DNA of 64,000 bases from Fibrobacter sp. (GTDB lineage Bacteria > Fibrobacterota > Fibrobacteria > Fibrobacterales > Fibrobacteraceae), in assembly GCA_017530965.1 (NCBI GenBank), contig JAFXLS010000053.1:1-64000 (forward strand), read 5' to 3'. Shown here piece by piece: positions 18,501 to 34,757 of this stretch. The notes under the pieces were generated by a model. It worked only from the letters and a program-made list of their open reading frames with translations. It searched no databases and was not told the origin of the DNA. Every line of letters begins with the position of its first letter. Position 1 is the first letter of the stretch. Position numbers and translations under genes: made by a program.

Positions 18501-18767
18501 GTGAAGTTTTGGAAGACCATAATCGTTGCATTGGTGGTGGCGGGGTTACTCTCGATTGCCCAGCACCATCATGACGACTTTGACGAGCATGACGATTGCC
18601 TAGTCTGTGCGCTGGTGCAGAATGGTCTTGACGTGGCAAGCGGTACCACGGACGTCGCCGTAATTCTAGTAGTTATCGGCGAACTGGTAAGTGAAATCCG
18701 CATTTTCAGGACAAACCCGCGTTTTCACTTTTCAAGACCGCGCGCCCCTCCCGCTCTCTCCACATAA
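18501..18767 (+). CDS. Small His/Asp/Cys protein (DUF2946-like)
   Basis: 88-aa product from a GTG start at 18501. A single hydrophobic segment (about 4-19) is followed by AQHHHDDFDEHDDCLVCALVQNG (about 20-42), a probable metal site, then a second hydrophobic stretch (about 48-67) and a basic Pro-rich tail. The layout echoes the 88-aa protein at 15113. It lies 28 bp after the CCSQG protein in the zinc unit. No strong ribosome site is seen, so the exact start is uncertain. Confidence 0.5.
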   Translation: MKFWKTIIVALVVAGLLSIAQHHHDDFDEHDDCLVCALVQNGLDVASGTTDVAVILVVIGELVSEIRIFRTNPRFHFSRPRAPPALST

Positions 18768-18914
18768 TCCGTTAAAACCTTAACCGCAATATCCTGCTTT
18801 TTGCCTTGCGAAAAATCGCCAGGTGTTTTGGAGTATTGTCCGCAAAATTTTTCGCGGATAGGATTGTTGTACACAAAAGCCGTCCATTATGACGGCCGAT
18901 TAAACGAGAGAAAC

Positions 18915-19502
18915 ATGAAACTGATCCAAACCCTTTCCTTTGCCATTTTTGGCATCATCCTCAGCGTATTCTTTGCCGCCTGCGGCGACAGCAACAGCGC
19001 CTCGACCGACCAGCACGAACATTTTGAAGCCGAAGGCTGGAACCTTTATTGGGGCGACTGGCAGCTTGCCTACAGCGTTTACCGCGGCAAGGCCGATTCT
19101 TCCATCGAAGTGATGCACGTGAACGCAAACTGCATGAGCGAACATATCCACGTGAAATTCCTTGACGACAACAAGAAAGAAGTGGAACCCCCGACAGACG
19201 ATGAACATTCCCTCGCCTGGGAAATCGCCGACGAAAAAATTCTTGACGTACACTCCTGCGGCAGCTGGGGTTTCCATCTGAAGGGTGTCAAGGAAGGCGA
19301 AACGACTTTGATTCTGAAGGTGAACCATCACGACCATGCCGACGCTCGCACGCCTGCCATCCGCGTTGTCGTAGACAAGGCTTTGGACGCCGAGGAATGC
19401 CCGTTCCATGAACATCATCACGACGATGACGATGAAGACGAAGATCATGATCACGACCACGAACACCACGATCATGAACATGAGCACGAACATGAAGATT
19501 AG
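18915..19502 (+). CDS. Periplasmic lipoprotein with His-rich C-terminal tail
   Basis: 195-aa predicted lipoprotein: lipobox FFAAC, lipid Cys23. The central domain (about 35-155) is beta-rich with EHIHVKFLDDN and VHSCGSWGFHLKGVKEGETTLILKV, like an Ig-fold binding domain. The last 33 residues (about 163-195) are almost only His, Asp and Glu, a strong metal-binding tail. The start at 18915 is chosen because it gives a clean lipoprotein signal. Its end overlaps the TonB receptor start by 11 bp, so it probably hands zinc on from that receptor. No named family is recognised. Confidence 0.65.
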   Translation: MKLIQTLSFAIFGIILSVFFAACGDSNSASTDQHEHFEAEGWNLYWGDWQLAYSVYRGKADSSIEVMHVNANCMSEHIHVKFLDDNKKEVEPPTDDEHSLAWEIADEKILDVHSCGSWGFHLKGVKEGETTLILKVNHHDHADARTPAIRVVVDKALDAEECPFHEHHHDDDDEDEDHDHDHEHHDHEHEHEHED

Positions 19503-21507
19503 CCTCATTAGGGCTGCCATGGGGAGCCTCCTTCTGGGAGGCTTCCTTCACTCTTCTTTTGCCCAAATTGCAGGGCCGGATTCAGCCCAAGATTTTGTAC
19601 AGGATTTAGGAAGTTCGGTAGTGCAGGCGGAAAGCCCCGCGCATGCGATTTTAGAAGGCCTCCGCGAAGATGACGATTTAAAAGGCGACAAACTCGAACG
19701 CGCTATCTCTACAACTATTGCCGAAACCATCAAAAACGAGCCCGACGTAGCCATCCGTTCCATGGGTCCTGCCGCCGCACGCCCCGTTATCAAGGGCCTT
19801 TCGGGGAGCCATGTCGAATTGACCGAAGACGGCGCCTTTTGTGGAGACATGAGCGCCACCTCGCCCGATCACGCCGTCGCATCGGAAGTTTTAACCGCAC
19901 ACCGATTGCGAGTATTGCGCGGACCGCATATTTTGGCGCATTCATTTTCAGCCGCGGGCGGCGTAGTGCAAGTAGAACGCAACGACATTCCCTTTGGCGA
20001 TACCCTTTTTCACGGTTATGTCACGGGGTATTCTGAAAGTGCTCAGTCGGGATACGCAACAGCGGTAGGCGTCAACACGCAAGTTACAGGCGCATCACTC
20101 AAAGGAGAACTTTCAGCCCGCCGCATGGGCGACATGGAAACGCCCGATGGCACGCTGAAAAATACAGATATCGAAAACGGGAGCGGCGCCGTGGGCGCCG
20201 CGCACGCCTTGGGGCGTTTCCGTTTCGGAGCCTCTTACCGCTGGTTCAATAGCGACTACGGCATTCCCGGCGGCTTCATTGGCGGGCACCCGAACGGCGT
20301 GGACATTGAAATGTGGAAACGCGACTTAACGCTGCGGGGGCTTTACGTGCCGGCCAATGACGCCCGCGACACGCTAGATGTCACGCTTCGCATCAATCGT
20401 TATCACCATAAGGAATTTGAAGGAAAGAAGGGGGCGGTGGGGGCCGAGTTTGCTGTTAATCAGGAGAACTTGCGCTTAGAAAAACTCCTGGCAAGTCTCG
20501 GTCCCCTTTTTGGAATTCGCCTAGGAACAGAATTGGAACGCCGCTGGATTGAAATGGGCGGCTACGTATTCACGCCACCGACTCAGTCGTATGCAGGTTC
20601 CGCGTTTGCGGTCGCGAGCGCGAGTGGGTGGCGTGGGCTTGAAATTACAGTGGCCCTGCGACTCGGCGGAGCGATCTTTCGCCCGCATGAAAGCGTCGTC
20701 GCCGACAAGGGAACAATCGAAGATCGCAATTTTGCATTGTGGGCATTTGACGTGGAATTTTCGCAGCGCGTCGGTGTGGGCAAATTCTTGACGCTCGATT
20801 TGTTCAGGACCACACGGGCGCCCACCATCGAAGAATTATACAACCAAGGGCCGCATCTCGCCGCTTACACCTACGAGCGTGGCAACCACAAGCTGGACGC
20901 CGAAAGCGGCTACGGCAGCGAACTGGAATACCGCTCTTACGGCGATTTATTCAACTGGCGCGCGGCCGCTCACGCTACCTATTTCTTGAACTATCTCGCG
21001 CCCCGCGCTACAGGTGACACCAACTGGTCGCAGCTGCTCCCTATCTATCAAGTCAGCGGAGACGAGGCATTCCTTTTTGGCGGGAGCGTCTCCGTCGAAA
21101 CCGCGGCAGAACGCGGCATACACGCGACAGCCTCCGCAAGCTATGTGCGTGGCATGTACCGCAACGGCAACGATGCCAAAAACAAGTGGAGCGACATGCC
21201 GCAAATTCCGCCCCTCAAGTTCCACGGAGAATTCGCCTACCTCTGGGAACATGTGCGACCATCCATCTACACGGATTTCGCCCTCGCCCAGCACAAAGTC
21301 GATAAATACGAAGAACGCACCCCCGGCTACATCACCTTCGGCCTATCAGCAGAAATCCGCTGGGAACTCGCACTCGCGCATTACAGTCTCGTTTTCCGCG
21401 CCGACAACCTGCTAGACGCCGATGTTCGCAATCACCTTTCCCGCCTGAAATCGGTGATGCCCGAAAAGGGCCGCAATTTTAGCGCACTCGCAAAAATTGA
21501 ATGGTAA
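19492..21507 (+). CDS. TonB-dependent outer-membrane receptor, ZnuD-like
   Basis: 671-aa outer-membrane receptor, likely for zinc. The start at 19492 (MKISLIRAAMGSL) gives a signal peptide ending SSFAQ. The plug domain (about 50-180) contains RPVIKGLSGSHVELTEDG and LRVLRGPHILAHS. The barrel (about 180-671) has alternating aromatic strands and ends with GRNFSALAKIEW. The zinc context and the His-rich lipoprotein directly upstream, with an 11-bp overlap, support a ZnuD-type role. The substrate cannot be proved from sequence. RBS placement inside the His-tail codons suggests translational coupling. Confidence 0.83.
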   Translation: MKISLIRAAMGSLLLGGFLHSSFAQIAGPDSAQDFVQDLGSSVVQAESPAHAILEGLREDDDLKGDKLERAISTTIAETIKNEPDVAIRSMGPAAARPVIKGLSGSHVELTEDGAFCGDMSATSPDHAVASEVLTAHRLRVLRGPHILAHSFSAAGGVVQVERNDIPFGDTLFHGYVTGYSESAQSGYATAVGVNTQVTGASLKGELSARRMGDMETPDGTLKNTDIENGSGAVGAAHALGRFRFGASYRWFNSDYGIPGGFIGGHPNGVDIEMWKRDLTLRGLYVPANDARDTLDVTLRINRYHHKEFEGKKGAVGAEFAVNQENLRLEKLLASLGPLFGIRLGTELERRWIEMGGYVFTPPTQSYAGSAFAVASASGWRGLEITVALRLGGAIFRPHESVVADKGTIEDRNFALWAFDVEFSQRVGVGKFLTLDLFRTTRAPTIEELYNQGPHLAAYTYERGNHKLDAESGYGSELEYRSYGDLFNWRAAAHATYFLNYLAPRATGDTNWSQLLPIYQVSGDEAFLFGGSVSVETAAERGIHATASASYVRGMYRNGNDAKNKWSDMPQIPPLKFHGEFAYLWEHVRPSIYTDFALAQHKVDKYEERTPGYITFGLSAEIRWELALAHYSLVFRADNLLDADVRNHLSRLKSVMPEKGRNFSALAKIEW

Positions 21508-21533
21508 CACAAATCAAACCACAAAGGAGAACC

Positions 21534-22676
21534 ATGAAAAAGAACAAGAAACCCGTCATCCTCATTACCGGATATTTGGGCTCCGGCAAGACCACGCTCT
21601 TGAACAATATTCTCAAGCAAGAGAAACGAAAAGTCGCCCTTATCGTCAACGACATGGGAAGCATCAACGTCGATGCCGAAATTCTGAAAAAGAACGGCTC
21701 GAACGTGGCCGAATGTCCGATGTTCGAACTGCAAAACGGTTGCATTTGCTGCACGCTGCGCGACGAATTTATCGAACAAGTCGAAAAGATTTCCAAACTG
21801 GATTCTATCGAAGTCGTATTCGTCGAGGCCTCCGGCATCAGCGATCCCGGCGCCGTCAGCGCAAGCTTTTTGGCCTACGAAGAAGACAATCCCGACACAA
21901 ACGTTTACCTGACCTCCATCGTGACCGTCGTCGATGCCGACCGCATCTACCGCGAATTCCTCAGCGACTTGAAACATAAAAAAGAACAGCGGGACCACCT
22001 CGCCGACCAATACGATCTTTCCCAAGAAGAAATTTCCACATTGATCGTAGACCAAATCGAATTCTGCAACTTCATCGTCTTGAACAAGTGCGATTTGCTC
22101 AGCGAAGACCAACTCAAAGAAGTCGAATCCATCGTGCGGGATTTCCAGCCCCGGGCACCGATTATCCATTCGGTAAACGGAGACATCGATATCGACAAAA
22201 TCATGACGACCAAGCCCTTCAACTACAGCCAAATCGAATCGTCTTCGGCCATACAAAAAGCCACTGCAAGCCTGCTGCAATCCGGACGTCGGCGCGACAG
22301 CTGCGTAGACGAATACGGGATTTCATCCTTCGTTTTCGAGACCAGGCAACCGTTCAACAGGACCCGCTTCATGGATTTCGTCAATAACCGCTACCCAGCA
22401 GAACTAATCCGCTCCAAAGGTTACATCTGGTTCTCGGACGCGAGCAGGGACGTTCAACTGTTCGAACAGGCCGGCCGGAATTCCTCGGTCATGCCCGTAT
22501 CCTTTTGGATAGATGCCCTTCGTGAAGATCAAAAGCAAGCCTACCTTGCCGAAAATCCAGAAGTCCGGGAAAACTGGGATTCCCGCTACGGCGATCGCGA
22601 AAACCAAGTTGTCTTTATTGGCAAAGGTTACAATAAAGATACCATTCGAATGGAGCTTGAAAAATGCCTTGACTAA
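21534..22676 (+). CDS. COG0523 (CobW-like) GTPase, zinc metallochaperone type
   Basis: 380-aa G3E GTPase. Walker A GYLGSGKTT (about 11-19), metal motif GCICC (about 70-74), Walker-B-like EASG, NKCD guanine motif and a CobW C-terminal domain (about 270-375, with YIWFSDASRD). Such GTPases are induced by zinc shortage and are thought to deliver zinc to client enzymes. The ATG at 21534 follows a clear AAAGGAGA. It is the last gene of the zinc unit and is followed by a terminator. CobW, nitrile hydratase activator and zinc branches are hard to separate by eye; the context favours zinc. Confidence 0.85.
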   Translation: MKKNKKPVILITGYLGSGKTTLLNNILKQEKRKVALIVNDMGSINVDAEILKKNGSNVAECPMFELQNGCICCTLRDEFIEQVEKISKLDSIEVVFVEASGISDPGAVSASFLAYEEDNPDTNVYLTSIVTVVDADRIYREFLSDLKHKKEQRDHLADQYDLSQEEISTLIVDQIEFCNFIVLNKCDLLSEDQLKEVESIVRDFQPRAPIIHSVNGDIDIDKIMTTKPFNYSQIESSSAIQKATASLLQSGRRRDSCVDEYGISSFVFETRQPFNRTRFMDFVNNRYPAELIRSKGYIWFSDASRDVQLFEQAGRNSSVMPVSFWIDALREDQKQAYLAENPEVRENWDSRYGDRENQVVFIGKGYNKDTIRMELEKCLD

Positions 22677-22726: not shown

Positions 22727-24175
22727 TTACACTTCATCATGGTTTACTACTTCCCAATAGCCGGTTTTATCACTACCAACACGTTTCAAAATTCCCATTT
22801 TTTGAAGTTTTGACACATTATCAGTAATTGTTGTACGACCTAATCCCAATAATTTGGAAAGTTCCGCCAATGTGACATTGGAATTCTCAGACATTTTTTC
22901 CAAGATATTCATTTGGTTCTTTGATAATTTTACAGTCCGGTTTACAGTCCGATTTACAGTCCGATTTACAGTCCGATTTTCTGCATCCTTCCCCTCATTC
23001 AGCTCAAAAGGCGTCACATTTATCCGGTTAAAGGGAATCGTCACCACAATAAAATTTCGTTCAATTCGAATAGATTCTCGGCCATACGCCCCGACAATTT
23101 TGGGTACCCCACGCCCCGATCGTTCGCTAAGGCGAAGCTGAAGGAATATGGAAGCAAGGACCTCGTTGACTGGGATGCTTATCCCGTTGAAAAAGCCGTC
23201 TACATCCTGCTCAAGCGCCAACCCGCCATGCGAAATAATCTCGATGCGATCCGTAAAAACGCTTATCATGGGGGCGTTCAAACCCAGCCATTTGTTGTGA
23301 ATGAACGCATTCAGAATGGCTTCGTGAAAAGCCTCGTAATCGAAAAGCGGAATATCCTTTCTCTCGGAAATGCGGCCGCGTTCATCCGCCTGGATTATGT
23401 TGATAGCGTCTCCGTATTCCAGAATTTTATCCATCGCGTACAGAATGCAGGAATTGCCGTATTCCTTAACCGAGAACAAGGTGTCAGCCTTGCTCCGGCC
23501 GCTGAAAACAGAGACACGAATCGGAATGTCATTCTTATCCGAGAGAAGCAACGCCATAATGTTATAGCGGCCATCGACAGTCAAAAGCTTGAGCGATTTC
23601 TTGAAAGTATCCTTTCGGAGTTCGATTCCCTTCGCCCCATAATACATGAACAGCTTTTCGAACGTCAGTTCCTGCGCATAATCAGGGGCCGCCGCATTGA
23701 CAATGGTTGGAATGCCGTTAGAAAGAACATTCAAAAGACGAATTTCCCATTCAGGGAATTTCGAAAGTTTCTCTTTGCTGGAGCCAATCCGGATAAAAGC
23801 CTGAGACGAAAATTTCGTCGGAACGGATTTTGCCGCAGGGACACTCAACAGAACAATTCGCTTTCCATCAACCTGCACTTCCTCGACTTCAAACGCGACA
23901 CTCGGTTTCAGGTTACGGGCCAGATAGTGCTTATAGGGCTCGTGATCAATGTCTTTGTCGAAATTAACGGCTGTACCGATAATTTCATGCGAAGCATCGT
24001 CTACACCCCAAACGACATAACCGTATTCACGCCCACATAGGGCCGCCCCGTTGGAGATTGCAGAAATATACTCTCCGATTTCATCTTTCGAGAACCAGTT
24101 ACCTTTAATGTCTAGCCACTCGTATTCATGGGGAAGAGAAACCAAGTTCCTAACAAGGTCTTCAGATTTTGCCAT
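22727..24175 (-). CDS. AlbA_2 / divergent AAA_4 protein with NRTV repeat and C-terminal HTH
   Basis: 482-aa protein of the COG2865 type. The N-terminal AlbA_2 (Schlafen-like) nucleic-acid-binding domain covers about 10-135 (EWLDIKGNW, NGAALCGREYGYVVWGVDD, FIRIGSS). The central ATPase-like domain covers about 230-390 (EAFHEAILNAFIHN, RSGRGVPKI). A linker of four NRTV units lies at about 403-418, then a winged HTH (about 422-480, LAELSKLLGLGRTTITDNVSKLQKMGIL). Such proteins act as transcription regulators, and Schlafen-like members also occur in defence loci. RBS GGAGG precedes the ATG. It lies at the edge of the island with hamAB and the type ISP gene on the same strand. Role not established. 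Confidence 0.75.
   Translation of the reverse strand: MAKSEDLVRNLVSLPHEYEWLDIKGNWFSKDEIGEYISAISNGAALCGREYGYVVWGVDDASHEIIGTAVNFDKDIDHEPYKHYLARNLKPSVAFEVEEVQVDGKRIVLLSVPAAKSVPTKFSSQAFIRIGSSKEKLSKFPEWEIRLLNVLSNGIPTIVNAAAPDYAQELTFEKLFMYYGAKGIELRKDTFKKSLKLLTVDGRYNIMALLLSDKNDIPIRVSVFSGRSKADTLFSVKEYGNSCILYAMDKILEYGDAINIIQADERGRISERKDIPLFDYEAFHEAILNAFIHNKWLGLNAPMISVFTDRIEIISHGGLALEQDVDGFFNGISIPVNEVLASIFLQLRLSERSGRGVPKIVGAYGRESIRIERNFIVVTIPFNRINVTPFELNEGKDAENRTVNRTVNRTVNRTVKLSKNQMNILEKMSENSNVTLAELSKLLGLGRTTITDNVSKLQKMGILKRVGSDKTGYWEVVNHDEV
22929..22976 (-). repeat. In-frame 12-bp tandem repeat (4 units)
   Basis: Four units of TTTACAGTCCG(G/A) head to tail, inside the AlbA_2 gene, encoding NRTV each. 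The units are nearly identical at the DNA level, so copy number could change by slippage without frameshift. Confidence 0.85.
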
Positions 24176-24475
24176 ATAGCCTCCAAGTAGTCACAATAAG
24201 TGACGTCACAGATTGCGACCGGTTGATGTTTAGAGGCGCCTTTCGCATTCCGCAATCGCAGAAAAAAAAGGCGCATTTCTCCATTGGACAGAGAAACACG
24301 CCGCGCATTAATGTACCTATTATCCGAAAAACTGGCAAGGGGCGCAGAAAAATTTTACATAGGCGTTCCCCGGCACAAAAGGCCGGGTCGGGCTATACTC
24401 GCTTCGCTCACGGAGCCTTGCTTATGCAAGTCTCCGCCCTTACGGGTAACTATCCCTAACGCGGATGAACAAAAA
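24176..24475. other. Non-coding gap with several hairpins
   Basis: No convincing gene in about 300 bp; short frames on both strands have no family resemblance. Visible structure includes CCCGGC/GCCGGG with a 7-nt loop near 24370 and CTTGC-TTAT-GCAAG near 24420. A GCGGATGA/TCATCCGC stem (24461-24468 with 24476-24483) lies at the right border, over the stop of the reading frame that follows hamB. GC content is higher than in hamB beside it, suggesting a junction or a repeat element. Confidence 0.4.
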
Positions 24476-24631
24476 TCATCCGCATAATTCTAAAAGGAAT
24501 CTGCCCTCTCTAAGTTTTATCTTCAATTCTTTTTCAACACCTGTAAAATTATCCGCACTTATTGTCAACTTAAATTCTTTTTCAACCAAACCAAAAGATG
24601 TGTACCCATCATAATTATTTATCGCGTTGCC
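24476..24631 (-). other. 51-codon in-frame extension after the hamB stop
   Basis: Directly after the hamB TAA (24632-24634) the same frame stays open for 51 codons to a TGA at 24476. It has protein-like composition (starts GNAINNYDGYTSFGLVEKEF, ends FLLELCG) and no ATG. A 20-bp near-direct repeat encodes VEKEFKL and VEKELKI. It may be a tail cut off by a nonsense change, a readthrough region or the remnant of another gene. Confidence 0.35.
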
Positions 24632-26680
24632 TTAAATACTCTTTTGAACCAATTTCAAAATTCTTTTTTCAAAAGGTTGCAAATCTACTGTATCTGCAGA
24701 GAAATTTTTGATAGTTAACATCAAGTCATCTATCTCTGCATCTTTCTCCACTTCCACAGGCAATCTAGAATAGATTTGAATAGGCAACCCAAGTTCTTCA
24801 AACGCACTAGCAAAAGTTTTGTCAAAATAATTCCGTATTTTTTGAATGTAAAAGGAATAATCACCAGATTTTAATTCGTATGACGAAAACACACTATTTT
24901 GAATGTCGTTTAAAGCATTAAGACACATTGGTAAGATGTAATCGCACCAATTTCTCACAAATTTTAAGCAATCCTCTATTCCCTCATCAATATTATCCAA
25001 AGTTGCATTTTTTATTTGATCCTTTATAAATAAGGCAAAATTTGATGAGTTTTGTAAAGCCTTTAATCTATATGCTAATTGCTTGCTTGAAACAACACCG
25101 TTTCCCCTTTTTGCTGGGCATAAAAATGAAAAAATCAGTTCGGAAATACAATCAACTTGATCTTTATTTGGCAAATTATTCCAACTTAACAAGTCATAAT
25201 AATTGAGAGAATTTATTCGTATTTTATCCGCACAGTCTAATAATTGCTGAGGCTGGATGCCATTATGTTTTTTTATTATTTCATAGGGCAATATTTGCTG
25301 GGCGTGCAAGTATTTTAACCTTTCTTTAGCAGCTTCTGAAAGATCCGATTCTTCCATTCCTAAAAGCAATGTTTCGGGCATATCTTTTTGTTCACCCAAA
25401 ACAGGGATATCTACAATCGGTAAAGATTCTTGAAAAACGTAATCATCCTTTAAATAAATATTGCCCACAAAATGCTTGAACATTCGTCCGGCTCTGCCAC
25501 GAATGTTATTAAAAGTAAATAAATCAAATTTTTTTGAAGCAATTTTATTGTCATAGATTATCATATTTTTAGCAGAGGTATTTACACCTTCGATAATCGT
25601 GTTTGTAGATAACAAAAATTTTATTTTAGAACAATTAAAAAGGTGCAATATATACTGAGAAATTGCTCTTGGAAGTCCTGCATGGTGATAGCCAATTCCA
25701 TATCTCAATAAATCTACAATAATCCAGTCTTTCGAATAATTGATTTCAAGCCATTCGATAAAATCCTTTAACTCTAAGTTATCCTCTTGCAAAGGCAATT
25801 CAGCTTTGATTTCTTTTGCCAACTGGTTAATACTATTGCTTGATTTGCAAAAGATTAATGTTTGACCTTCTAAATTTTTGCACAGAGTCGGCACATCAGA
25901 GGGGCAACCATGAATTCCCATCTGATAAACGTTCACTGCAACCGTTTTAAAGTCTGTTTTTATGAATTTGTATTCTATTTGCTGCTCATTTGTTTTTTTT
26001 ATCGACTCTATGTTGGGTCCAATCATAAAGAATTGGCATTTTTCTTTTAACAATTTATAAAAGGCTTCGTTTAGAGCAATAGATCTATTCTCACCGGCCG
26101 CATTTAATTTATAAAACTCATCTATTACAAAAAAATCTATTTTCTTGTCAAAACTTGTTTCAAGAAAACGTTCTTGTGTAAAAATGCATATGTTCTTTTC
26201 CTCAAATTTCTGGGATGGAAACGATATAACTTTGTAATATTGAGAAAAATTCTTTGCTATCCGTTCTCTAGTTTCTTCAATTAGAGCAATTGACGGAACG
26301 ATTATGACTATGTTGGAATACTTCTGAGAAGCAATAACAGCGTCAATTAAAAAACTTTTGCCGAAACTTGTGGGAGCACTTAATATTACGTTTTCGCCAT
26401 CAAGAAGTAATCTGTACACTTCGCCTTGTTTACCATGAAGAACACAGTTCTCCATTCCTATAGGTTTATGCAATTCCAACAAAATCTTTTGATGTAAATC
26501 GCAAGATTCCTCATCCGTCATATATAGATACAGCCCAGCCTTTTCAAGCAAGCTATTAACAACAGGGGTCAATTGAGAGGCAAAAGGTTGATCTATAAAT
26601 TTAATTAAGTCCTCTCGACCTTTATCTATATCGGTTAAGAGTTTTTGGCTTATATTTTTCAAATCATCAAAAGCAGACAT
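24632..26680 (-). CDS. hamB: Hachiman defence helicase HamB
   Basis: 682-aa superfamily 2 helicase of the Ski2-like kind and partner of HamA in the Hachiman anti-phage system. Motif I APTSFGKS (102-109), motif II DEFY (187-190, a DExH variant), motif V region STNTIIEGVN and motif VI RGRAGRMF are present. A helical C-terminal half (about 420-682) follows. Its ATG shares one base with the hamA stop (TAATG). The DNA is visibly AT-rich compared with the flanking core genes, as expected for recent transfer. In described systems the helicase senses phage-induced DNA changes and releases the HamA nuclease. It seems short for the family, and the same frame continues after the stop. Confidence 0.85.
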   Translation of the reverse strand: MSAFDDLKNISQKLLTDIDKGREDLIKFIDQPFASQLTPVVNSLLEKAGLYLYMTDEESCDLHQKILLELHKPIGMENCVLHGKQGEVYRLLLDGENVILSAPTSFGKSFLIDAVIASQKYSNIVIIVPSIALIEETRERIAKNFSQYYKVISFPSQKFEEKNICIFTQERFLETSFDKKIDFFVIDEFYKLNAAGENRSIALNEAFYKLLKEKCQFFMIGPNIESIKKTNEQQIEYKFIKTDFKTVAVNVYQMGIHGCPSDVPTLCKNLEGQTLIFCKSSNSINQLAKEIKAELPLQEDNLELKDFIEWLEINYSKDWIIVDLLRYGIGYHHAGLPRAISQYILHLFNCSKIKFLLSTNTIIEGVNTSAKNMIIYDNKIASKKFDLFTFNNIRGRAGRMFKHFVGNIYLKDDYVFQESLPIVDIPVLGEQKDMPETLLLGMEESDLSEAAKERLKYLHAQQILPYEIIKKHNGIQPQQLLDCADKIRINSLNYYDLLSWNNLPNKDQVDCISELIFSFLCPAKRGNGVVSSKQLAYRLKALQNSSNFALFIKDQIKNATLDNIDEGIEDCLKFVRNWCDYILPMCLNALNDIQNSVFSSYELKSGDYSFYIQKIRNYFDKTFASAFEELGLPIQIYSRLPVEVEKDAEIDDLMLTIKNFSADTVDLQPFEKRILKLVQKSI

Positions 26681-27537
26681 TATTCCTGAAGTCCTTTTAA
26701 TTTTTTATCAGCAAAAGAGATGAGTTCTTGTTTATCTGCTAAAGGAACTAAAAAAACATGGAGCTTTATATTTAACCCTTGGCATTTTTGTTCAAGGAAG
26801 CGAAACGCAGCATTGCATTCATTTGCAATATCTTTTTCGAATGATTCATTAAATTCTGTATGTTTGCTATACACATCCGTGTTATAGGTGATTAAAATGG
26901 GAATGCATATTCGTTTTCTTATTTCATCCAATGACACCCTGTCAGAAATAAGCTCCTTGAATTTAGGAGACAATTCCCAAGCATTGTCTATTTTCCCCTC
27001 AACAAACATAAACTCATTTCTTAAGAATCCAGCTTCCAAATGCTGATGGATTTCCGCTACAACATCGCTAATAGCACTTTTATAATCTGAATAAAACTTT
27101 GCCTCACCTAACCATATTTCATAGTCATCATCAATTTCAACTAAATGGACCGCATCAAATCCTTTCACAGTATCATTGGCTGATGTTTTATAAAAAACTT
27201 TACTTACCGCTGGCTTTGAATCAAAAAATTCCCTTATCAATGCATGCAATAGGATTTCGCCAAACTCGCCTCTATTTTCTTTCTTAATAGTTGTATATAC
27301 ATGATTGGCTGCTTTTTTCAACAACCTTTTTCCTGTCGCACCATTAAAATTTGCGTATTCTGAAAACTTTAATGCGAATTCAGGAAGCCACTCTATTAAA
27401 TATTCCGCAAAGTCTTTTACACGCCATTTACCACTTTCGTAATCAGAGCACGATAAAGTTTTACCAGGAACGCTTTCACTGGCTAGTTTGTGGAATATAA
27501 CCCTTAAGAAGCTTTCTGGCTTATCCTCAAAGCTCAT
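26680..27537 (-). CDS. hamA: Hachiman defence nuclease HamA (DUF1837)
   Basis: 285-aa DUF1837 protein, the effector nuclease of Hachiman. The core RGEFGEILLHALIREFF (about 89-105) is followed by Asp128 (GFDAVHLV) and WLGEAKFY with Glu145 and Lys147, a PD-(D/E)xK-type active site. It is directly upstream of, and overlapping, the helicase gene hamB, the diagnostic order of this system. The gap of 54 bp after the type ISP gene suggests readthrough from it. The ribosome site is weak. AT-rich DNA like hamB. Assignment rests on these motifs plus the helicase partner. Confidence 0.87.
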   Translation of the reverse strand: MSFEDKPESFLRVIFHKLASESVPGKTLSCSDYESGKWRVKDFAEYLIEWLPEFALKFSEYANFNGATGKRLLKKAANHVYTTIKKENRGEFGEILLHALIREFFDSKPAVSKVFYKTSANDTVKGFDAVHLVEIDDDYEIWLGEAKFYSDYKSAISDVVAEIHQHLEAGFLRNEFMFVEGKIDNAWELSPKFKELISDRVSLDEIRKRICIPILITYNTDVYSKHTEFNESFEKDIANECNAAFRFLEQKCQGLNIKLHVFLVPLADKQELISFADKKLKGLQE

Positions 27538-27591
27538 AATACTTTAACCTAAATGTCGTTACTTTTTAACGAATATAATAAACCATACAGC

Positions 27592-30500
27592 CTAGAACTT
27601 CAACTTTGGCAGGTTCTTGACTATTTTCATGGTTTCAAGGCTTACGGTGATGATGCGTAAGACAAGATTGAAGATGTATTTGGGGTCATTGTGTTCCAAA
27701 GCCCAGTCGTTGGGGTCGTTTACGATGCCGCTCGCCTTGTCGGTGGTGATGGCGTAGCGTTCCATTATCCACTCAATGGCAGATTTGCCGTTCACTACAT
27801 ATTCGTAGGCTTCGAGCGGAATGTTTGCAATGGCAACCTTTTCGTTATAAATGATGCGGCTCTTGTCATCGACATTTTTGGCTTTGCCCTTGCTGTCGTA
27901 GCCGGATTTCTTGGCAAATCGCATCTGGCGCACCTTATACAGGGATTCAGGGGCTTCGGCGCTATAAAAGCTCTTGATGTCTGCCGCCATACCACTAAAC
28001 ATCGGGAGATCGGAGGAAACCTGGTTCGATGAGACGATGATCGCCTTGTAGGGTTCGGCGGTTTCGTAGTTCAGGTGGATTTCGGCGAGCTTGCGGCCTG
28101 CTTTGCTGAATGCCCAAAATTCATCGGCGGTATCGACAAGCGGGATGCGCGGGAGCATCTTTTTGAGGTCGGCTGCGAACTCGGTGCGGTATTCCTCAGA
28201 ATGAAGGAAACCGTATACATAGTAGAAGATGTCTTCCTTCTTGATTTTGGGCTCGCCGTATTGGGTGCGTGCTTGCTTCAGAATGTAATCGCTGACGGCA
28301 TCCTTACGGACGTAATCACCTGAAGCAAATAAATCATTTCCTTCGGGCTTCTCATAATAATAGAGTGGGAAGCACTGAGCTTTATCGACAACTTGCAAAT
28401 CGGTTATATTATTTAAGATAAAAACGGAAAAGGGCTTTTGTTGTCCGACGCCTGAAACCGCAATCGCTATATTTGACATGTCTGATTTCGGGAATAATCT
28501 TGGCAACATATATTGCATAGCATTAAAGTCTTTGTGGAAGCAAAGGTTTTGCTTGCAAAAAGGCCTGTACGTGGAAACGTAATAAACATCAGAAGGAATG
28601 TTCATTAAACGTTTTTTTTCAAGCAGTTGCTTCAAATTTCTATTCCACGAAATATGTGTTGGATTTGAATCTACCCAACTATCAATTGTATTTGCTTTTG
28701 GGGTTTCTTTTATATATCGTTCAACTTCGCCGTTATATGCATGTTGCATTTTCTCAACATTTTGCTTCAATGCATTTTTTGAGAAGTTATACGCCCATGC
28801 ATCTCGTCCTGTTGCCAATCCAAGAGAATTTGTCAAAAACCAGCTTTTACATGCTGCATCATATTTTTTCTCAGGCTCAATAGAGATCCATTTCCCGAAT
28901 GCGGCATTACGCTGATTAATCCAGTCTCCATGTTCATTGGGATGTAATACATCCATCTGCAAATGAGTTATGCTCTCAGTTTCCTTGATTATCCGCAGTT
29001 TGTCTTCGCGGGTCAGATAGTCGCCAATATCATAGTATTTGATAACAGCTTTATTTGGGGCCGCATCGTTACTGGCAGGGTGTTTTACAAGGATTGTGAT
29101 AGATACGGGGGTGCGACTACCACTGCCGAAGATTTTGCCCCCCTCTTTTCGAGAGAGTTCGCCACTGGTGCGCTGATTTCCGCGTAGGTTAAACACATAT
29201 ATCTTGTTAAATTCTTTTTCCAAACTTTTGCGGAAACCGTCCATTCCATTGGAATCTATCCAACTGCCATTGGTGATAAAACCTATTACGCCGCCATTTT
29301 TTGAGTCAATGCGGTCCGTAGCCCAGCGGAATGCTTTTATATAGCTATCGTACAAGGCTTTGACTGATGTCGCAGAGCTACTTTGAGCGTATAATCTTTC
29401 AATACGACTATCTAAATCAGGATATTTTTGATTTTGAGCGTCATCGTTTCCTGATTTCTGCCCCACAGAATACGGCGGATTCCCAATCACCACCTGGATG
29501 GGCACTTTCTTTTGGGCTCTTGCGCGGGGGCCGTTTACCGGGAATATATCTTCGCCAAAGTCTTCTTGGTGGGATTTTTCGCCCAACTGGAAACTGTCTG
29601 TCAAGCAAATCCCTTCAAACGGGGTGTAGTCGCAGGCGCCCATGACATCGTGATAGGCGTTTTCGATGTTCACGCTTGCAATGTAATAGGCCAACAGCAC
29701 GATTTCGTTAGTTTTAAGTTCCTTCTTGAACTTGCGTTCCAAATCCTTCTTGTTGATAAGACCGCTCTGAATTAGGCGCGTCATGAAGGTGCCCGTCCCC
29801 GCAAACGGGTCGATAATGTTCACGTTCTCGTCGGTGAGTTTGCGGTTAAATTCCTGCCGCAATACATCGTCTACGCTATGGAGGATAAAATCGACGCATT
29901 CCACCGGAGTATAGACAATACCTAGCTTTTCGACGGTCTTGGGGAGCGCACTCTTGAAGAACTTGTCATAGAGTTCGATAATAATTTTCTGCTTGCCATC
30001 GGCGCTTTCTACACCCTCGGCGCGGAGCTTTACGCTCTGATAGAACTTTTCAAGGCTGCTCTTATCCACATCGTCGGTGGTGCTTTCCACGGCATTGATG
30101 ACGCGCTGCAATGCCCTAGAAACGGGGTTATTCTTTGCGAAGTCGTAGTCCTCAAATAGCGCCTCAAAAACGGGTCTTGTTATCAGGTGTTGCGAAAGCA
30201 TTTCTATCGCCTGTTCCTCGTTTACGCCGGGGTTCAGGTTCTTTTTCAACGCCGTCAGGAACTTGTCAAACTGCTTTTTGGGGTTGCCATCGACGGCGAT
30301 AAGCCTGCGAATGCGGTCTTCGTGGCGCTTGGCAATGTCTGCCACGTCCTTTGCCCAGTCTTCCCAATAGCGGCGACTGCCGACCTTTTCCACCATCTTG
30401 GCATAAATGGCGCCCTGCAATTCCTTGAATTTTAGCTCCAGCTGGTCTTGGAGTTCCTGTTGTTGCATCCGTTTTGCGGGGTCTATGGTTTCCGTTTCTG

Positions 30501-33048
30501 TTTGTCTGTGATTGATGCCGTCCGAAATCCCGATTCGCCTACTTGGGTTCGTTCCTGGAGTGCTGAACTGGATTTTGTTTACCATCGCATTGAAACGGTC
30601 ATCATGAGCACGCAGGGCGTTCAGGATCTTCCAGACCACCTTGAAACGATCATTGTTGTTCAGGGCGTCTTCGGCTTTTTCGCTTGCGGGGACAATTACC
30701 GGAATAATGATGTAGCCGTATTTTTTGCCGGGAGCCGTTCGCATGACACGGCCCACGCTCTGCACCACGTCCACTTCGGAGTCGCGGGCGCTCAGGAACA
30801 GGACTGCATCGAGGCTCGGAACGTCCACGCCTTCGCTCAAACAGCGGACATTGTTCAAGATACGGCATTCGCCGTCTTCGATGTCAGCCTTGAGCCACGC
30901 CAGTCGCTCATCACGGGCTGAGGCGCCCATACCGCCATCAATGTGCATGGCCTTGGCGCGGACCGTCTGCTTTTGGGCTTCGGGTTTAAGCGCTTCATAA
31001 TAGGAGTCTTCCAGGTCGTTGATAAGGGTCGTGACTTCTTTGGATATCTTGATGTTCTGTGAGAACGCCACGGCGCGTTTCATCGGTTGTGGGTCCGTTT
31101 CCCTTAACTGGTGGTCATCTACCAGCGTAATCTTGGAAAGCGCGTTAAAACACCCGATGAGCTTCGCCTCGTCATCAGAAAGGACCTCGCCCGAGTCGGT
31201 TGCAAGCGACATCTGTAAACTATCGGTCATTGCCAAAGGGTCGATGGTAAGTACAAGCACCTTGTAATCGGAGAGAAGCTGTTTTTCGACGGCTTCACCA
31301 AAGCCGATGCGGAACATTTCGTCGCCGTAGAGCTTCGTATCGTCCATGGAACAGATTTCCACAGATCCTTCTTCGGCCTTCTTTTTGCTCGATTCGCTGA
31401 AAAGGCGCGGGGTCGCGGTCATATACATGCGTTTTTTCGCACGTAGAAACTTATTGTCGTGAACCTTGACGAAGTTCGACGCCTCGGTGCCTAATTGGGT
31501 GGCGCCCGTGGTACGGTGGGCTTCATCGCAAATAATCATGTCGAACACAAACTGTTCGCCCATTTTCTTTTGCGCCTTGGAAATCACGTCAATGGATTGA
31601 TAGGTGCTGAACACCACCGTCATGCCGCCTTTTTTGTATTTGGCGACTTCCAGCTGTTGGACTATCGTAGAGACGTTTGTAGATGCAGGGAGGGCCAAAT
31701 CCGTGATGCTGTAGCCATCGCCCTCGTTTTCGTTCTTGTGCGCGGTCCTAGAAACGCCGGAGTCGCTGCAAATACAGATAGGCTTGATGGGGTCGCTTGC
31801 ATCGGCGGTCCATTCGCGGAGGGTCTGCCCCAAGAGCGCAATGGAGGGAACTAGGAACAGGATAGTACCTTTACTGTCGGTTTCCTTTTCGGCAATGCAG
31901 AGCGAAGTGTAGGTCTTACCCGTACCGCACGCCATAATGAGTTTGCCGCGTTCGTGGGACTCGTCCTTGAAGTATTCGTGGACCTTTGCAATGGCCTCTT
32001 TTTGGTGATCGCGGGGCGCCTTTTTCTTGACTTGGGCTTTCTCGCCGCTCGCGCCCTTATCCAGGCGTTCCCAGTCCACCATGGCGTTTTCAAGTTCCAG
32101 GAGGCCCACGCGGTGAAACTCCGGATCCTGGTTTTCGAGGGAGTTCAAAGCCTCCCTGTTGAACCCCTGTTCGGTGGTGTCTAGCCACAGGCGGAACGCA
32201 AAGCGCACCTTGTTCCCGTCTTTGTCGTGGAAAGTCTTGCCCGAAGTCGCAAGGAACGTGTCGACGGCGGGTTTGTCGATTTTAGCGTCTGCTTTATAGC
32301 ACTTGCACTGGATTGCCCAATAACTTCCACCCGTCGTTTCAGCCACCAGGTCGATGCCTACGTCCTTGCCGCCGAACTGGTCCTTTGCAAAGAACTCGTT
32401 CCATAGCCACACATTCGTGAGGCTGTTCGCGTAAACGGGATCTGTCTGCAAGTAGCGCTTCATCAGCATTTCGAACTTGTTGCCCTTTTCGCGTTCTGAA
32501 ACGCTTTCGGCGCGATACTTGTCGAGAATACGGGTGAATGTGGACTTATAGGCGCCTCTGAAATCTATCTTAGGTTCGTTCTGCCCCAGGTGCTCCGAAC
32601 CTGGCATATAACGCAGGCCAAGACCGCCCGGAGAGTTGAGCCATTCCGATTCGGGCCACAGCTTAAACTCTATGATGTGGACCCCGTACTCGCCATCAAA
32701 CACGTCCATATCGCCAGTTAGGACTTCTCCGATAATTTTCCCGCTGCCGTTTGTCTTGGCGAATAGCTTACGGGCTTTTTTGCAGGCGCCTTCAAACTCA
32801 TTACGGGCGGCTTCCTGTTCAGATGCTGATTTCTTTTTGATGGACTTGTTTAGCTGTTTTTCCCAGTAGACGATTTGGCTTTCGAGGTCTTTTTCTGATC
32901 CAGCGGATTTGGAAACAGCGAGGGCAAGTCGCTTGTTTGCGAACGTCTTCGCGTTGGTTCGAAATTCGAAGGTCTTGACACCAGTGAGCAAAAGCTCCAC
33001 AAACGGAGAGCGAACAACGAAGTATTGGAGCGGCTTATCCTGCTGCAT
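27592..33048 (-). CDS. Single-chain type ISP restriction-modification enzyme with N-terminal ASCH domain
   Basis: 1818-aa protein that should both methylate and cut DNA, like the LlaGI/LlaBIII group. Order: ASCH (PUA-like) domain about 5-150 (FVELLLTGVKTFEFRTN; KIIGEVLTGDMDVFD), not part of the usual enzyme. An Mrr-type nuclease follows at about 180-300 (GIDLVAE with Asp233; IQCKCY with Gln247 and Lys249). The SF2 translocase covers about 340-800 (Walker A ACGTGKT, DEAH box in ICDEAHR, QSVGRVMR). Then come a helical coupler and an N6-adenine methyltransferase (about 1030-1330; DPFAGTGTF, GNPPYS), and a target-recognition region to the C-terminus. The extra length over the roughly 1570-aa LlaGI comes largely from the ASCH part. 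No frameshift is seen. It may share a transcript with hamAB. Confidence 0.9.
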   Translation of the reverse strand: MQQDKPLQYFVVRSPFVELLLTGVKTFEFRTNAKTFANKRLALAVSKSAGSEKDLESQIVYWEKQLNKSIKKKSASEQEAARNEFEGACKKARKLFAKTNGSGKIIGEVLTGDMDVFDGEYGVHIIEFKLWPESEWLNSPGGLGLRYMPGSEHLGQNEPKIDFRGAYKSTFTRILDKYRAESVSEREKGNKFEMLMKRYLQTDPVYANSLTNVWLWNEFFAKDQFGGKDVGIDLVAETTGGSYWAIQCKCYKADAKIDKPAVDTFLATSGKTFHDKDGNKVRFAFRLWLDTTEQGFNREALNSLENQDPEFHRVGLLELENAMVDWERLDKGASGEKAQVKKKAPRDHQKEAIAKVHEYFKDESHERGKLIMACGTGKTYTSLCIAEKETDSKGTILFLVPSIALLGQTLREWTADASDPIKPICICSDSGVSRTAHKNENEGDGYSITDLALPASTNVSTIVQQLEVAKYKKGGMTVVFSTYQSIDVISKAQKKMGEQFVFDMIICDEAHRTTGATQLGTEASNFVKVHDNKFLRAKKRMYMTATPRLFSESSKKKAEEGSVEICSMDDTKLYGDEMFRIGFGEAVEKQLLSDYKVLVLTIDPLAMTDSLQMSLATDSGEVLSDDEAKLIGCFNALSKITLVDDHQLRETDPQPMKRAVAFSQNIKISKEVTTLINDLEDSYYEALKPEAQKQTVRAKAMHIDGGMGASARDERLAWLKADIEDGECRILNNVRCLSEGVDVPSLDAVLFLSARDSEVDVVQSVGRVMRTAPGKKYGYIIIPVIVPASEKAEDALNNNDRFKVVWKILNALRAHDDRFNAMVNKIQFSTPGTNPSRRIGISDGINHRQTETETIDPAKRMQQQELQDQLELKFKELQGAIYAKMVEKVGSRRYWEDWAKDVADIAKRHEDRIRRLIAVDGNPKKQFDKFLTALKKNLNPGVNEEQAIEMLSQHLITRPVFEALFEDYDFAKNNPVSRALQRVINAVESTTDDVDKSSLEKFYQSVKLRAEGVESADGKQKIIIELYDKFFKSALPKTVEKLGIVYTPVECVDFILHSVDDVLRQEFNRKLTDENVNIIDPFAGTGTFMTRLIQSGLINKKDLERKFKKELKTNEIVLLAYYIASVNIENAYHDVMGACDYTPFEGICLTDSFQLGEKSHQEDFGEDIFPVNGPRARAQKKVPIQVVIGNPPYSVGQKSGNDDAQNQKYPDLDSRIERLYAQSSSATSVKALYDSYIKAFRWATDRIDSKNGGVIGFITNGSWIDSNGMDGFRKSLEKEFNKIYVFNLRGNQRTSGELSRKEGGKIFGSGSRTPVSITILVKHPASNDAAPNKAVIKYYDIGDYLTREDKLRIIKETESITHLQMDVLHPNEHGDWINQRNAAFGKWISIEPEKKYDAACKSWFLTNSLGLATGRDAWAYNFSKNALKQNVEKMQHAYNGEVERYIKETPKANTIDSWVDSNPTHISWNRNLKQLLEKKRLMNIPSDVYYVSTYRPFCKQNLCFHKDFNAMQYMLPRLFPKSDMSNIAIAVSGVGQQKPFSVFILNNITDLQVVDKAQCFPLYYYEKPEGNDLFASGDYVRKDAVSDYILKQARTQYGEPKIKKEDIFYYVYGFLHSEEYRTEFAADLKKMLPRIPLVDTADEFWAFSKAGRKLAEIHLNYETAEPYKAIIVSSNQVSSDLPMFSGMAADIKSFYSAEAPESLYKVRQMRFAKKSGYDSKGKAKNVDDKSRIIYNEKVAIANIPLEAYEYVVNGKSAIEWIMERYAITTDKASGIVNDPNDWALEHNDPKYIFNLVLRIITVSLETMKIVKNLPKLKF

Positions 33049-33053
33049 GAAAA

Positions 33054-33070
33054 ATCCTTTTTAAAAGGAT
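33054..33070 (-). promoter_or_regulatory. 17-bp palindrome over the ribosome site of the type ISP gene
   Basis: ATCCTTTT-T-AAAAGGAT, starting 6 bp upstream of the ATG. The AAAAGGAT arm contains the ribosome binding site, so it could be an operator or an RBS-masking hairpin. Confidence 0.45.
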
Positions 33071-33130
33071 CCTTCTCTTAAGCGCACAGCATGTCTTCGC
33101 GTAAAAAAAGGCGTGGAGTCGCAGTGCCTA

Positions 33131-33249
33131 TCTAGTCTGCGGGCTACCACACCCTTCTACACAATAAGCACAAACGACCCACGCCCCAATAGGGACGTGA
33201 GCGCTCGTCTTATCCTCGTGTAGATTGAAAGTGGTAGTTTCAGACTAGA
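33131..33249. repeat. 119-bp imperfect palindrome (long hairpin), possible ncRNA or mobile element
   Basis: Nested complementary blocks share one centre near 33190: TCTAGTCTG/CAGACTAGA (33131-33139 with 33241-33249), CTACCAC/GTGGTAG (33144-33150 with 33231-33237), TCTACAC/GTGTAGA (33156-33162 with 33218-33224), ATAAG/CTTAT, ACGA/TCGT and CACG/CGTG, then a CCC/GGG tip. About 39 pairs in one extended stem. It lies 83 bp upstream of the type ISP gene in a roughly 400-bp gap without a convincing gene. Confidence 0.6.
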
Positions 33250-33343
33250 GAATAAGAGACGAATCTCGAAATTTTCCTGTCGCCCAATGCAGTGAAGCAA
33301 GGGGCTATGTCTATGGAGAAATGTAGTATAATCGCTATAATGG

Positions 33344-33367
33344 ATTGCTTCGCCTTCGGCTCGCAAT
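33344..33367. repeat. REP-like short palindrome
   Basis: ATTGC at 33344 and GCAAT at 33367 enclose GCTTCGCC-TTC-GGCTCGC, a compact GC-rich stem of the REP type. Sequences ending in GCTCGCAATGACG are common bacterial intergenic repeats. Other copies were not found in this window. Confidence 0.4.
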
Positions 33368-33464
33368 GACGTAAAAAAGGTGATTCCGGCACGGGGGTCT
33401 TAGTAAACAATTTTTTTATTCCTGGGGTTCTCGCAGGGGCCTAAAAAAAGATATATTGTGTCCC

Positions 33465-34757
33465 GTGAAAAAGTTTTCGGCTAAATTGATGACGTTGCTC
33501 ATTTTTGCAGGAGTTGCGTTATCCCATGCAATTACGGCAGTTCCCATTAGCGGCATCAAGGCTTCCGCCACCCTGCCGGATTATGGTCAGAACACCTTCC
33601 GGCCCGAAAACATGGTCATGAAAAAGTACGTGCACCCCTTTTATCAGGTCTGGGGAGCCAAATACAATGACAAGTCGATTACCCTGGAATTCCTGGTAGA
33701 AGCCCAGCGTCTGGATCAGATTACCCTATACAATGGGTTCATGCGAGATTCTGCCTCTTACGTGAACAACAGCCTTGCCAAAAGCATCAAGATTTACCTG
33801 AACACCTCGGACAATCTTGTAAAGGTGGCCACCCTCGCAAAGCCCAAATGGCACGGGTACAAAAATCCCCACGCCGACATCATCGTTTTTGACAGGCCTT
33901 TGAAGAATGTCTTCAAGATTATCATCGAAATCGAAGACATTTATCCGGGAAAGCTTTACCCCAACGTGTGTATCGCCCTGATCAAGTTCTGGGGATTCCC
34001 CAAGATGCCCCGTAAATTCCAGACAGGGCAGATGACGGACCCCCGCGATGGCCAAGTCTACAGAACCATTACCATAGGCGACCAGACTTGGATGGCTCAG
34101 GACATGCGATACAAGACTCCTGGAAGCCGCACTTTTATAGGGGATTCTCCCAAAATCAAGCAGCCTTCCGATGCCGGCCTCGAATACCCTGAATCGGACA
34201 TCGAAGGAATTTGCCCCGAAGGTTGGCGCTTGCCGAAGGCCGCCGAGCTGGAAGACCTGAAAACGAATCTTCCCGAAAACGCCTCTTACGACGACCTATT
34301 CTCGGCTGCCTACCGGAGACCTTTCTATTCCATCCAGGAAGTTGAAAAACAGAGCGGATCCCAGGCCTACTCCACGGATGCCGAATTATTCTTCTTCCCG
34401 ACGAATGCCACCGGGCTGAATTTCTCCACTCTGACACGCCACTATTACGATGGCGAATGCACCGAAGAAGCCGGCGAAACCTACGCATTTTCTTCATATT
34501 GGACCAAAGACGCAAAAGATATTCCCCTTTGGCCTGACGAAAACGGCAACGTGGAAGTCAAGCACCTGAGACACTACCGCTTTGGTGGTACTGATTACTG
34601 CGAAGCCATGCTTTGCCACGAAGACTACCATTTCGTACGCTGCCTGGAAGGCTCCGATACTCTGGAAGAATCCACCAGCGAGAGCTCCGACAGCGGCGAG
34701 AGCGTCGAAAGCAATGAAAGCGGCGAAAACGGCATCACAGGCGAAAGCCAGGAATAA
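33465..34757 (+). CDS. Secreted FISUMP-domain protein with N-terminal glycan-binding-like domain
   Basis: 430-aa exported protein. The GTG start at 33465 (MKKFSAKLMTLL) gives a signal peptide ending ALSHA; a TATATT -10 box ends only 8 bp upstream, so the mRNA may be leaderless. The first domain (about 25-180, QVWGAKYNDKSITLEFLV, VFKIIIEIEDIY) is a discoidin-like sandwich of the kind called NADase-type glycan-binding. The FISUMP domain (about 195-390) shows DGQVYRTITIGDQTWMAQDM and CPEGWRLPKAAEL. The last 35 residues are a Ser/Glu-rich tail. FISUMP proteins are abundant in Fibrobacter surface proteomes but their function is unknown. Confidence 0.75.
   Translation: MKKFSAKLMTLLIFAGVALSHAITAVPISGIKASATLPDYGQNTFRPENMVMKKYVHPFYQVWGAKYNDKSITLEFLVEAQRLDQITLYNGFMRDSASYVNNSLAKSIKIYLNTSDNLVKVATLAKPKWHGYKNPHADIIVFDRPLKNVFKIIIEIEDIYPGKLYPNVCIALIKFWGFPKMPRKFQTGQMTDPRDGQVYRTITIGDQTWMAQDMRYKTPGSRTFIGDSPKIKQPSDAGLEYPESDIEGICPEGWRLPKAAELEDLKTNLPENASYDDLFSAAYRRPFYSIQEVEKQSGSQAYSTDAELFFFPTNATGLNFSTLTRHYYDGECTEEAGETYAFSSYWTKDAKDIPLWPDENGNVEVKHLRHYRFGGTDYCEAMLCHEDYHFVRCLEGSDTLEESTSESSDSGESVESNESGENGITGESQE

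What the first reader, a model, noticed from the sequence alone, without database searches (positions are those of the whole stretch)
27592..33048. ASCH domain fused to a single-chain type ISP restriction-modification enzyme
The first 150 residues are an ASCH (PUA-like) domain placed before the Mrr nuclease, translocase, N6-adenine methyltransferase and recognition region. Described type ISP enzymes such as LlaGI start with the nuclease. ASCH relatives bind nucleic acid or modified bases, so this part could sense modified phage DNA or RNA, or gate the nuclease. The fusion, next to Hachiman, is the best candidate here for a new defence architecture.
Basis: partly seen in the sequence, partly recalled or inferred. 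Interest (0 to 1): 0.75.

Follow-up and report, generated by a model that had tools for sequence, protein, structure and literature searches.

The report
Restriction enzyme carrying an ASCH domain
A rumen-type Fibrobacter carries a one-piece restriction enzyme with an extra nucleic-acid-binding (ASCH) domain in front of its nuclease; free-standing versions of the same domain lead many unrelated restriction operons in related bacteria, which suggests a portable helper for restriction systems.

Summary
The ORF at 27592-33048 (minus strand, 1818 aa) is a complete type ISP restriction-modification enzyme (residues ~168-1818) preceded by an ASCH domain (~1-150). Evidence for ASCH: the GxKxxExR motif, the profile match, and a fold match to EOLA1 and ASC-1/TRIP4. 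Pfam's own cut-off is not reached.

The fusion is rare: among ~80 type ISP relatives only Fibrobacteraceae have it. It is real: four genomes share it, under purifying selection. It is dispensable: a fifth has a clean in-frame deletion of the ASCH codons that keeps the leader and first eight residues.

Going further, the same ASCH subfamily occurs as a ~150-aa gene in 13 more Fibrobacteraceae genomes. In 10 of them it lies just upstream, same strand, of restriction genes of unrelated kinds (DpnII/Dam, C5-methylase with MutH-like nuclease, type I, type III-like, McrB/LlaJI-like). The pocket motif is constant while the partners' methylation chemistry is not, so ASCH probably does not read the host mark.

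Best guess, inferred only: it reads or removes phage base modifications that would block restriction. Hachiman adjacency is real but not conserved. Verdict: new variant of a known kind.

The parts
27592..33048 (-). whole ASCH-type ISP restriction-modification protein, 1818 aa
   Evidence: ORF and translation
32599..33048 (-). ASCH domain, residues 1-150
   Evidence: motif, profile-profile match, fold match to EOLA1 and ASC-1/TRIP4
32959..32982 (-). GVKTFEFR = GxKxxExR pocket motif, residues 23-30
   Evidence: G, K, E and R invariant in 15 of 15 aligned family members
32746..32901 (-). K/E-rich helical hairpin inserted in the ASCH barrel, residues 50-101
   Evidence: two helices H52-69 and H75-99, mostly pLDDT above 90
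32539..32598 (-). linker, residues 151-170; free-standing relatives end at its beginning
   Evidence: alignment A1
32047..32448 (-). Mrr-family nuclease, residues 201-334
   Evidence: Pfam Mrr_cat_2 1.7e-38; D and QxK motifs
30736..32022 (-). SF2 translocase, residues 343-771
   Evidence: Pfam ResIII and Helicase_C; GTGKT, DEAH, QSVGRVMR
29998..30369 (-). type ISP coupler, residues 894-1017
   Evidence: Pfam ISP_coupler 1.3e-47
29179..29979 (-). N6-adenine methyltransferase, residues 1024-1290
   Evidence: Pfam N6_Mtase and Eco57I; DPFAGTG and NPPY
27664..28839 (-). C-terminal specificity domain, residues 1404-1795
   Evidence: Pfam Type_ISP_C 3.6e-107
33049..33208 (-). leader and presumed promoter region, shared with L116 (fused) and L002 (ASCH deleted)
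   Evidence: about 87% identity over 106 bp; alignment
26680..27537 (-). HamA of an adjacent Hachiman system; neighbour, not part of the conserved unit
   Evidence: Pfam HamA 8.8e-62; PADLOC
24632..26680 (-). HamB of the adjacent Hachiman system
   Evidence: PADLOC HamB 2e-217

Best explanation
This is a working-looking type ISP restriction-modification enzyme that has absorbed a Fibrobacteraceae-specific ASCH protein which normally sits as the first gene of R-M operons. SHOWN: the domain is ASCH; it is fused in frame in front of the nuclease; the pocket motif is invariant; the fusion is conserved in four genomes and lost cleanly in another; free-standing copies lead R-M operons of unrelated kinds. 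INFERRED: the ASCH pocket binds a flipped-out, probably modified, base or nucleotide of incoming phage DNA, and either marks that DNA for the attached nuclease/translocase or removes the modification, so that phages whose modified bases would hide restriction sites are still cut. Because it serves R-M systems of several methylation chemistries, it more likely deals with the phage's modification than with the host's own methyl mark. Reading versus erasing cannot be decided from sequence.
For: ASCH identity. Fusion in four genomes, one in another genus, with pN 0.10-0.21 against saturated synonymous change (pS 0.73-0.93) in the ASCH part. Free-standing relatives in 13 genomes; in 10 of them R-M genes follow on the same strand: DpnII/Dam (L102), C5 methylase plus MutH-like nuclease (L109, L111, L114), type I HsdM/HsdS (L113), type III-like helicase + DUF4391 + N4/N6 methylase (L112), McrB_N/LlaJI (L104, L106), C5 methylase plus PADLOC type II REase (L105), C5 methylase (L103). 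In six, the next gene starts within 27-72 bp. Five of the 13 genomes have a C5 methylase within about 3.5 kb, though such genomes hold mostly one to four of them in ~3.5 Mb. Control: only 2 of 30 canonical ASCH genes of the same phylum lie within 1.5 kb of such genes, against 8 of 13 here. K, E and R of the motif are invariant across partners with N6A, 5mC and N4/N6 chemistry. Precedents: BapA, an ASCH-like protein, strips glucose from 5hmC so that the glycosylase of its operon can act, widening the phage range (PMC13160076); the PUA-superfamily EVE domain is the modification sensor of VcaM4I (PMC7897488, abstract); the EOLA1 motif residues line a base-sized cavity (PMC6803910).
Against: No ligand, substrate or phage phenotype is known for this subfamily, and no experiment was possible. 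Loss of ASCH in L002 and L005, and the disrupted free-standing copies in L113 and L114, show it is dispensable. Several free-standing loci share one chromosomal hotspot (MarR/LMW-phosphatase flank: L104, L105, L107, L109, L111), so they are not fully independent. The R-M query set of the 8-of-13 comparison came from those same loci. L110 has UvrD and AIPR, not R-M; L107 and L108 show no R-M, but the contigs end. The good AF2 model used phage ASCH rows in its alignment, so it does not test ASCH homology independently.
Confidence: 0.4

Rival explanations
1. ASCH is a regulator of R-M expression, working like an R-M controller protein: it binds the operon's promoter or mRNA and times restriction against modification. 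In the fusion it became part of its target.
For: The free-standing gene is the first gene of the operon, before any kind of R-M. HTH-ASCH fusions and a suggested regulatory role of ASCH are described (PMC7641849). A role in expression explains indifference to methylation chemistry.
Against: The fused copies have different upstream regions: window, L116 and L002 share one, L115 and L117 do not, so no common operator is seen. No HTH is attached. A single-chain R-M enzyme with built-in methylation needs timing less. The R-M genes near L104 have their own HTH gene.
Confidence: 0.2
2. ASCH is a passive passenger: a hotspot gene that serves as a homologous anchor behind which R-M cassettes are swapped, and that was fused by loss of a stop codon.
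For: Several loci share the same flanking genes while the R-M content differs; near-identical C5 methylases stand behind clearly diverged ASCH genes (L109 versus L111); broken copies exist (L113, L114); in-frame loss in L002.
Against: Purifying selection on the ASCH codons, synonymous change saturated; pocket motif invariant in 15 of 15; fusion kept in four genomes including another genus and in different surroundings; R-M association also seen away from the hotspot (L112, L113, L114, fused L115-L117).
Confidence: 0.2
3. ASCH is an enzyme acting on RNA or free nucleotides (RNase like Z. mobilis ASCH, or amidohydrolase like YqfB), giving a second effector beside DNA cleavage, for example an abortive response.
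For: ASCH proteins with RNase and with N4-acylcytidine amidohydrolase activity are known (cited in PMC7641849; PMC6972931). The K/R-rich helical insertion could hold RNA (sequence; helices).
Against: The YqfB nucleophile (Thr24 in KxxTxR) is a glutamate here (KTFEFR), so that triad is not met. Fusion to a DNA translocase and partnership with R-M genes point to DNA.
Confidence: 0.15

Closest known systems
Type ISP restriction-modification enzymes (LlaGI, LlaBIII)
   Same: Single chain with Mrr nuclease, SF2 translocase, coupler, N6A methyltransferase and TRD in the same order
   Different: LlaBIII aligns from its residue 12, i.e. it begins with the nuclease; this one has ~165 extra residues forming an ASCH domain in front
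ASCH linked to type I R-M (Bell et al. 2020, PMC7641849)
   Same: ASCH and EVE proteins beside type I R-M, and an ASCH-HsdS fusion in Methanohalophilus, predicted to confer modification specificity
   Different: Here another ASCH subfamily in Fibrobacteraceae, fused to a type ISP enzyme, and free-standing before R-M operons of several types
BapA of the Brig3 operon (PMC13160076)
   Same: ASCH-like protein encoded with a DNA-targeting defence enzyme
   Different: BapA is shown there to remove glucose from glucosyl-5hmC; no such activity is known here and sequence kinship was not tested
EOLA1/CXorf40A and ASC-1/TRIP4 ASCH domains
   Same: Same fold and the same GxKxxExR motif
   Different: Eukaryotic proteins; the helical insertion, fusion and genomic setting differ
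PUA-superfamily modification sensors fused to nucleases (EVE-HNH VcaM4I, YTH-McrB)
   Same: A PUA-like reader fused to a restriction nuclease
   Different: Those are modification-dependent type IV enzymes; this enzyme has its own methyltransferase and specificity domain

Membership tests
Type ISP restriction-modification | single polypeptide with Mrr nuclease, SF2 translocase, coupler, N6A methyltransferase and C-terminal specificity domain in that order | tested here: met
   Pfam and PADLOC; LlaGI and LlaBIII matches
Type ISP restriction-modification | catalytic motifs of nuclease, ATPase and methyltransferase present | tested here: met
   D..QxK, GTGKT, DEAH, QSVGRVMR, DPFAGTG, NPPY
Type ISP restriction-modification | nuclease at the N-terminus (usual layout, not a strict criterion) | tested here: not met
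   ~165-residue ASCH domain in front
Type ISP restriction-modification | asymmetric site, ATP-driven translocation, cleavage when enzymes converge | not testable with these tools
   needs biochemistry
ASCH superfamily | GxKxxExR motif | tested here: met
   GVKTFEFR at 23-30; the four motif residues invariant in 15 members
[quoted passage not shown]
   AF2 model pLDDT 79; top five PDB matches all ASCH-fold; the alignment assumed ASCH homology
ASCH superfamily | Pfam PF04266 gathering score | tested here: not met
   13.7 bits against 21.2; diverged, with a helical insertion
YqfB-type amidohydrolase | Lys21-Thr24-Glu74 triad with Arg26 (KxxTxR) | tested here: not met
   KTFEFR has Glu at the Thr position
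Modification-dependent (type IV) restriction | cleaves only modified DNA, no own methyltransferase | tested here: not met
   own methyltransferase and specificity domain present
Hachiman, adjacent | HamA and HamB present | tested here: met
   no HamAB relative seen near fused copies L115 and L116

The most novel reading that the evidence does not exclude
A lineage-specific ASCH protein is a portable, R-M-type-independent accessory that extends restriction to phages with modified DNA, by reading or stripping the modification. It works as a separate operon-leading protein for type I, II, III-like and McrB-like systems, and as a fused domain in type ISP.
Probability: 0.33. Interest if true: 0.8.

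Novelty: new variant of a known kind. Interest (0 to 1): 0.55.

Why it matters
Base modification is a main way phages escape restriction. An ASCH module shared by R-M systems of many types in one bacterial family, sometimes fused and once cleanly deleted, would be a general add-on against that escape, and the natural fused and deleted pair makes it directly testable. ASCH domains are widespread, but their functions are largely unproven.

Tried and rejected
AF2 on the three fusion sequences alone: pLDDT 45, discarded. Canonical viral ASCH of the 'SIKPE' type as guide rows: misaligned at the insertion, not used. tblastn of the domain in plasmids and phages: none. Viral contigs with the family profile: no relative. 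PHROGs and PADLOC with the domain: nothing useful. BFVD fold search: nothing. Rfam on 24000-34000: nothing, so no known RNA in the leader. Laying the whole genome in the Python box was not available, so the background rate of R-M genes was estimated from PF00145 counts. 'Special link with Hachiman' rejected: not seen near other fused copies. 'The N-terminal part is standard in type ISP' rejected. 'Chance or mis-called start' rejected: four genomes share it and selection preserves it. 'YqfB-like amidohydrolase' rejected on the missing threonine.

Full report
WHAT IS THERE. The reported coordinates hold one ATG-started ORF of 1818 codons on the minus strand. Residues ~168-1818 are a canonical type ISP restriction-modification enzyme: Mrr nuclease, SF2 translocase, coupler, N6-adenine methyltransferase and ISP specificity domain by Pfam, REase_MTase_IIG over 168-1818 by PADLOC, LlaGI and LlaBIII by PDB sequence search. 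All catalytic motifs checked are present. LlaBIII aligns from its own residue 12 to query residue 168, so about 165 residues are extra.

THE EXTRA PART IS AN ASCH DOMAIN. Alone it scores weakly against Pfam ASCH (E=0.1, 13.7 bits, below the 21.2 cut-off), but ASCH is the only family that all 15 members of its own family match (best E=4e-4). The motif GVKTFEFR fits GxKxxExR and its four motif residues are invariant in the family. Profile-profile comparison with true Fibrobacter ASCH proteins gives 87% probability, E=4e-6, against at most 1.2% for reversed and shuffled controls; against phage ASCH proteins 53%, controls at most 0.5%. A profile search of PDB sequences ranks EOLA1 and its mouse homologue first (E=0.015). 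AlphaFold2 with phage ASCH rows gave pLDDT 79, pTM 0.71, with a long helical hairpin (about residues 52-99) inserted in the barrel; the top five PDB fold matches are EOLA1/CXorf40A and ASC-1/TRIP4, the rest noise. The guide rows assumed ASCH homology, so the model is support, not an independent proof; a three-sequence model failed.

HOW WIDESPREAD THE FUSION IS. Of ~80 type ISP relatives in the genome collection only Fibrobacter sequences carry this domain; nearly all others begin with the nuclease. Within 111 Fibrobacteraceae genomes, 11 have an ISP gene and four of those have the fusion: the window, G086/L116, G094/L115 and, in another genus, G108/L117. The ASCH codons are under strong purifying selection (pN 0.10-0.21 with pS 0.73-0.93).

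A NATURAL DELETION. In the ISP tree the two close relatives without ASCH (L002, L005) fall among the fused ones; the within-clade branches are short, but the L117/L005 pair is well supported. In L002 the protein starts MPQDKPLQ-NKSSFTRILDKYR, that is, the first eight residues of the fused form (MPQDKPLQYFVV... in L116) joined directly to the start of the ISP part, behind the same leader as the window and L116. The simplest reading is an in-frame loss of the ASCH codons from a fused ancestor. It rests on one MAG. It shows that the domain is not required for the ISP reading frame to persist.

FREE-STANDING RELATIVES LEAD R-M OPERONS. The same ASCH subfamily occurs as a ~150-aa gene in 13 further Fibrobacteraceae genomes. 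Reading their surroundings: DpnII with Dam (L102, 51 bp gap); C5 methylase with MutH-like nuclease (L111 directly, L109 and L114 after a SEC-C protein); type III-like helicase, DUF4391 and N4/N6 methylase (L112, 27 bp); type I HsdM/HsdS (L113, 72 bp; this ASCH copy is disrupted); McrB_N and LlaJI-like nuclease (L104, L106); C5 methylase with a PADLOC type II restriction enzyme (L105); C5 methylase (L103, with a KilA-N gene between). L110 has UvrD and AIPR genes instead; L107 and L108 end at contig borders. That is 10 of 13 with R-M genes downstream on the same strand, six with the next gene within 27-72 bp. Background: mostly one to four C5 methylases per ~3.5 Mb genome (nine match pieces in G102), yet five of 13 lie within about 3.5 kb of the ASCH gene. 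Only 2 of 30 canonical ASCH genes of the same phylum are within 1.5 kb of such genes, against 8 of 13 here; the query set came from these loci, so this is indicative only. Several of the loci share one hotspot with changing R-M content, so the cases are not all independent.

WHAT IT MOST LIKELY DOES. The partners use N6-adenine, 5-methylcytosine and N4/N6 chemistry, while the ASCH pocket motif does not change. A reader of the host's own mark is therefore unlikely. A shared job is more plausible: handling phage base modifications that hide restriction sites, by recognising or by removing them. The nearest precedent is BapA, an ASCH-like protein that strips glucose from phage 5hmC so that its operon partner can act (PMC13160076); other PUA-superfamily domains sense modified bases in restriction enzymes (PMC7897488, PMC11037411), and an ASCH-HsdS fusion was predicted to confer modification specificity (PMC7641849). 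This is inference; a regulatory role, an RNA-directed enzyme and a passive hotspot passenger remain open. A YqfB-type amidohydrolase is disfavoured because its threonine is replaced (PMC6972931).

NOVELTY. ASCH next to type I R-M, ASCH-HsdS and ASCH-nuclease fusions, and ASCH in BREX proteins have been described (PMC7641849, PMC10853773, PMC12839542). I found no description of ASCH on a type ISP enzyme nor of one ASCH subfamily leading R-M operons of several types, within the open-access library searched. I rate it a new variant of a known kind.

Noticed in passing
L052 (Slackia) and L059 (Adlercreutzia), first ~275 residues of their type ISP proteins: A different N-terminal fusion on type ISP enzymes: 50% identical between the two, matches PADLOC candidate PDC-S61 (2.5e-73) and a PD-(D/E)XK model, so possibly a second nuclease in front of the Mrr domain.
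   Followed up: partly
window 24632-27537: Complete Hachiman pair HamA/HamB, 54 bp downstream of the ISP gene on the same strand.
   Followed up: partly
window 22727-24175: Schlafen/AlbA_2 protein with RecG-like C-terminal part and winged helix, next to the defence genes.
   Followed up: no
window 15379-22676; L103 and L108: A zinc-uptake-like region (ABC genes, TonB-type gene, ZigA-like CobW GTPase) flanks the defence genes here and also flanks free-standing ASCH loci in L103 and L108, on its other side. Possible defence hotspot; ABC and TonB gene names judged by eye.
   Followed up: partly
window 33049-33208; L116 4528-4633; L002 7751-7853: Conserved leader with GC-rich inverted repeats and T runs before the ISP gene, no Rfam match.
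   Followed up: partly
L113 9707-10114 and 18541-18915: A type I R-M locus with two ASCH genes: a disrupted copy of this subfamily and a canonical ASCH.
   Followed up: no
L054 14830-15351: A canonical ASCH gene about 2 kb downstream of a type ISP gene in Paenarthrobacter.
   Followed up: no
L102, L103, L107, L108: KilA-N domain genes, identical in several genomes, recur beside free-standing ASCH genes.
   Followed up: no
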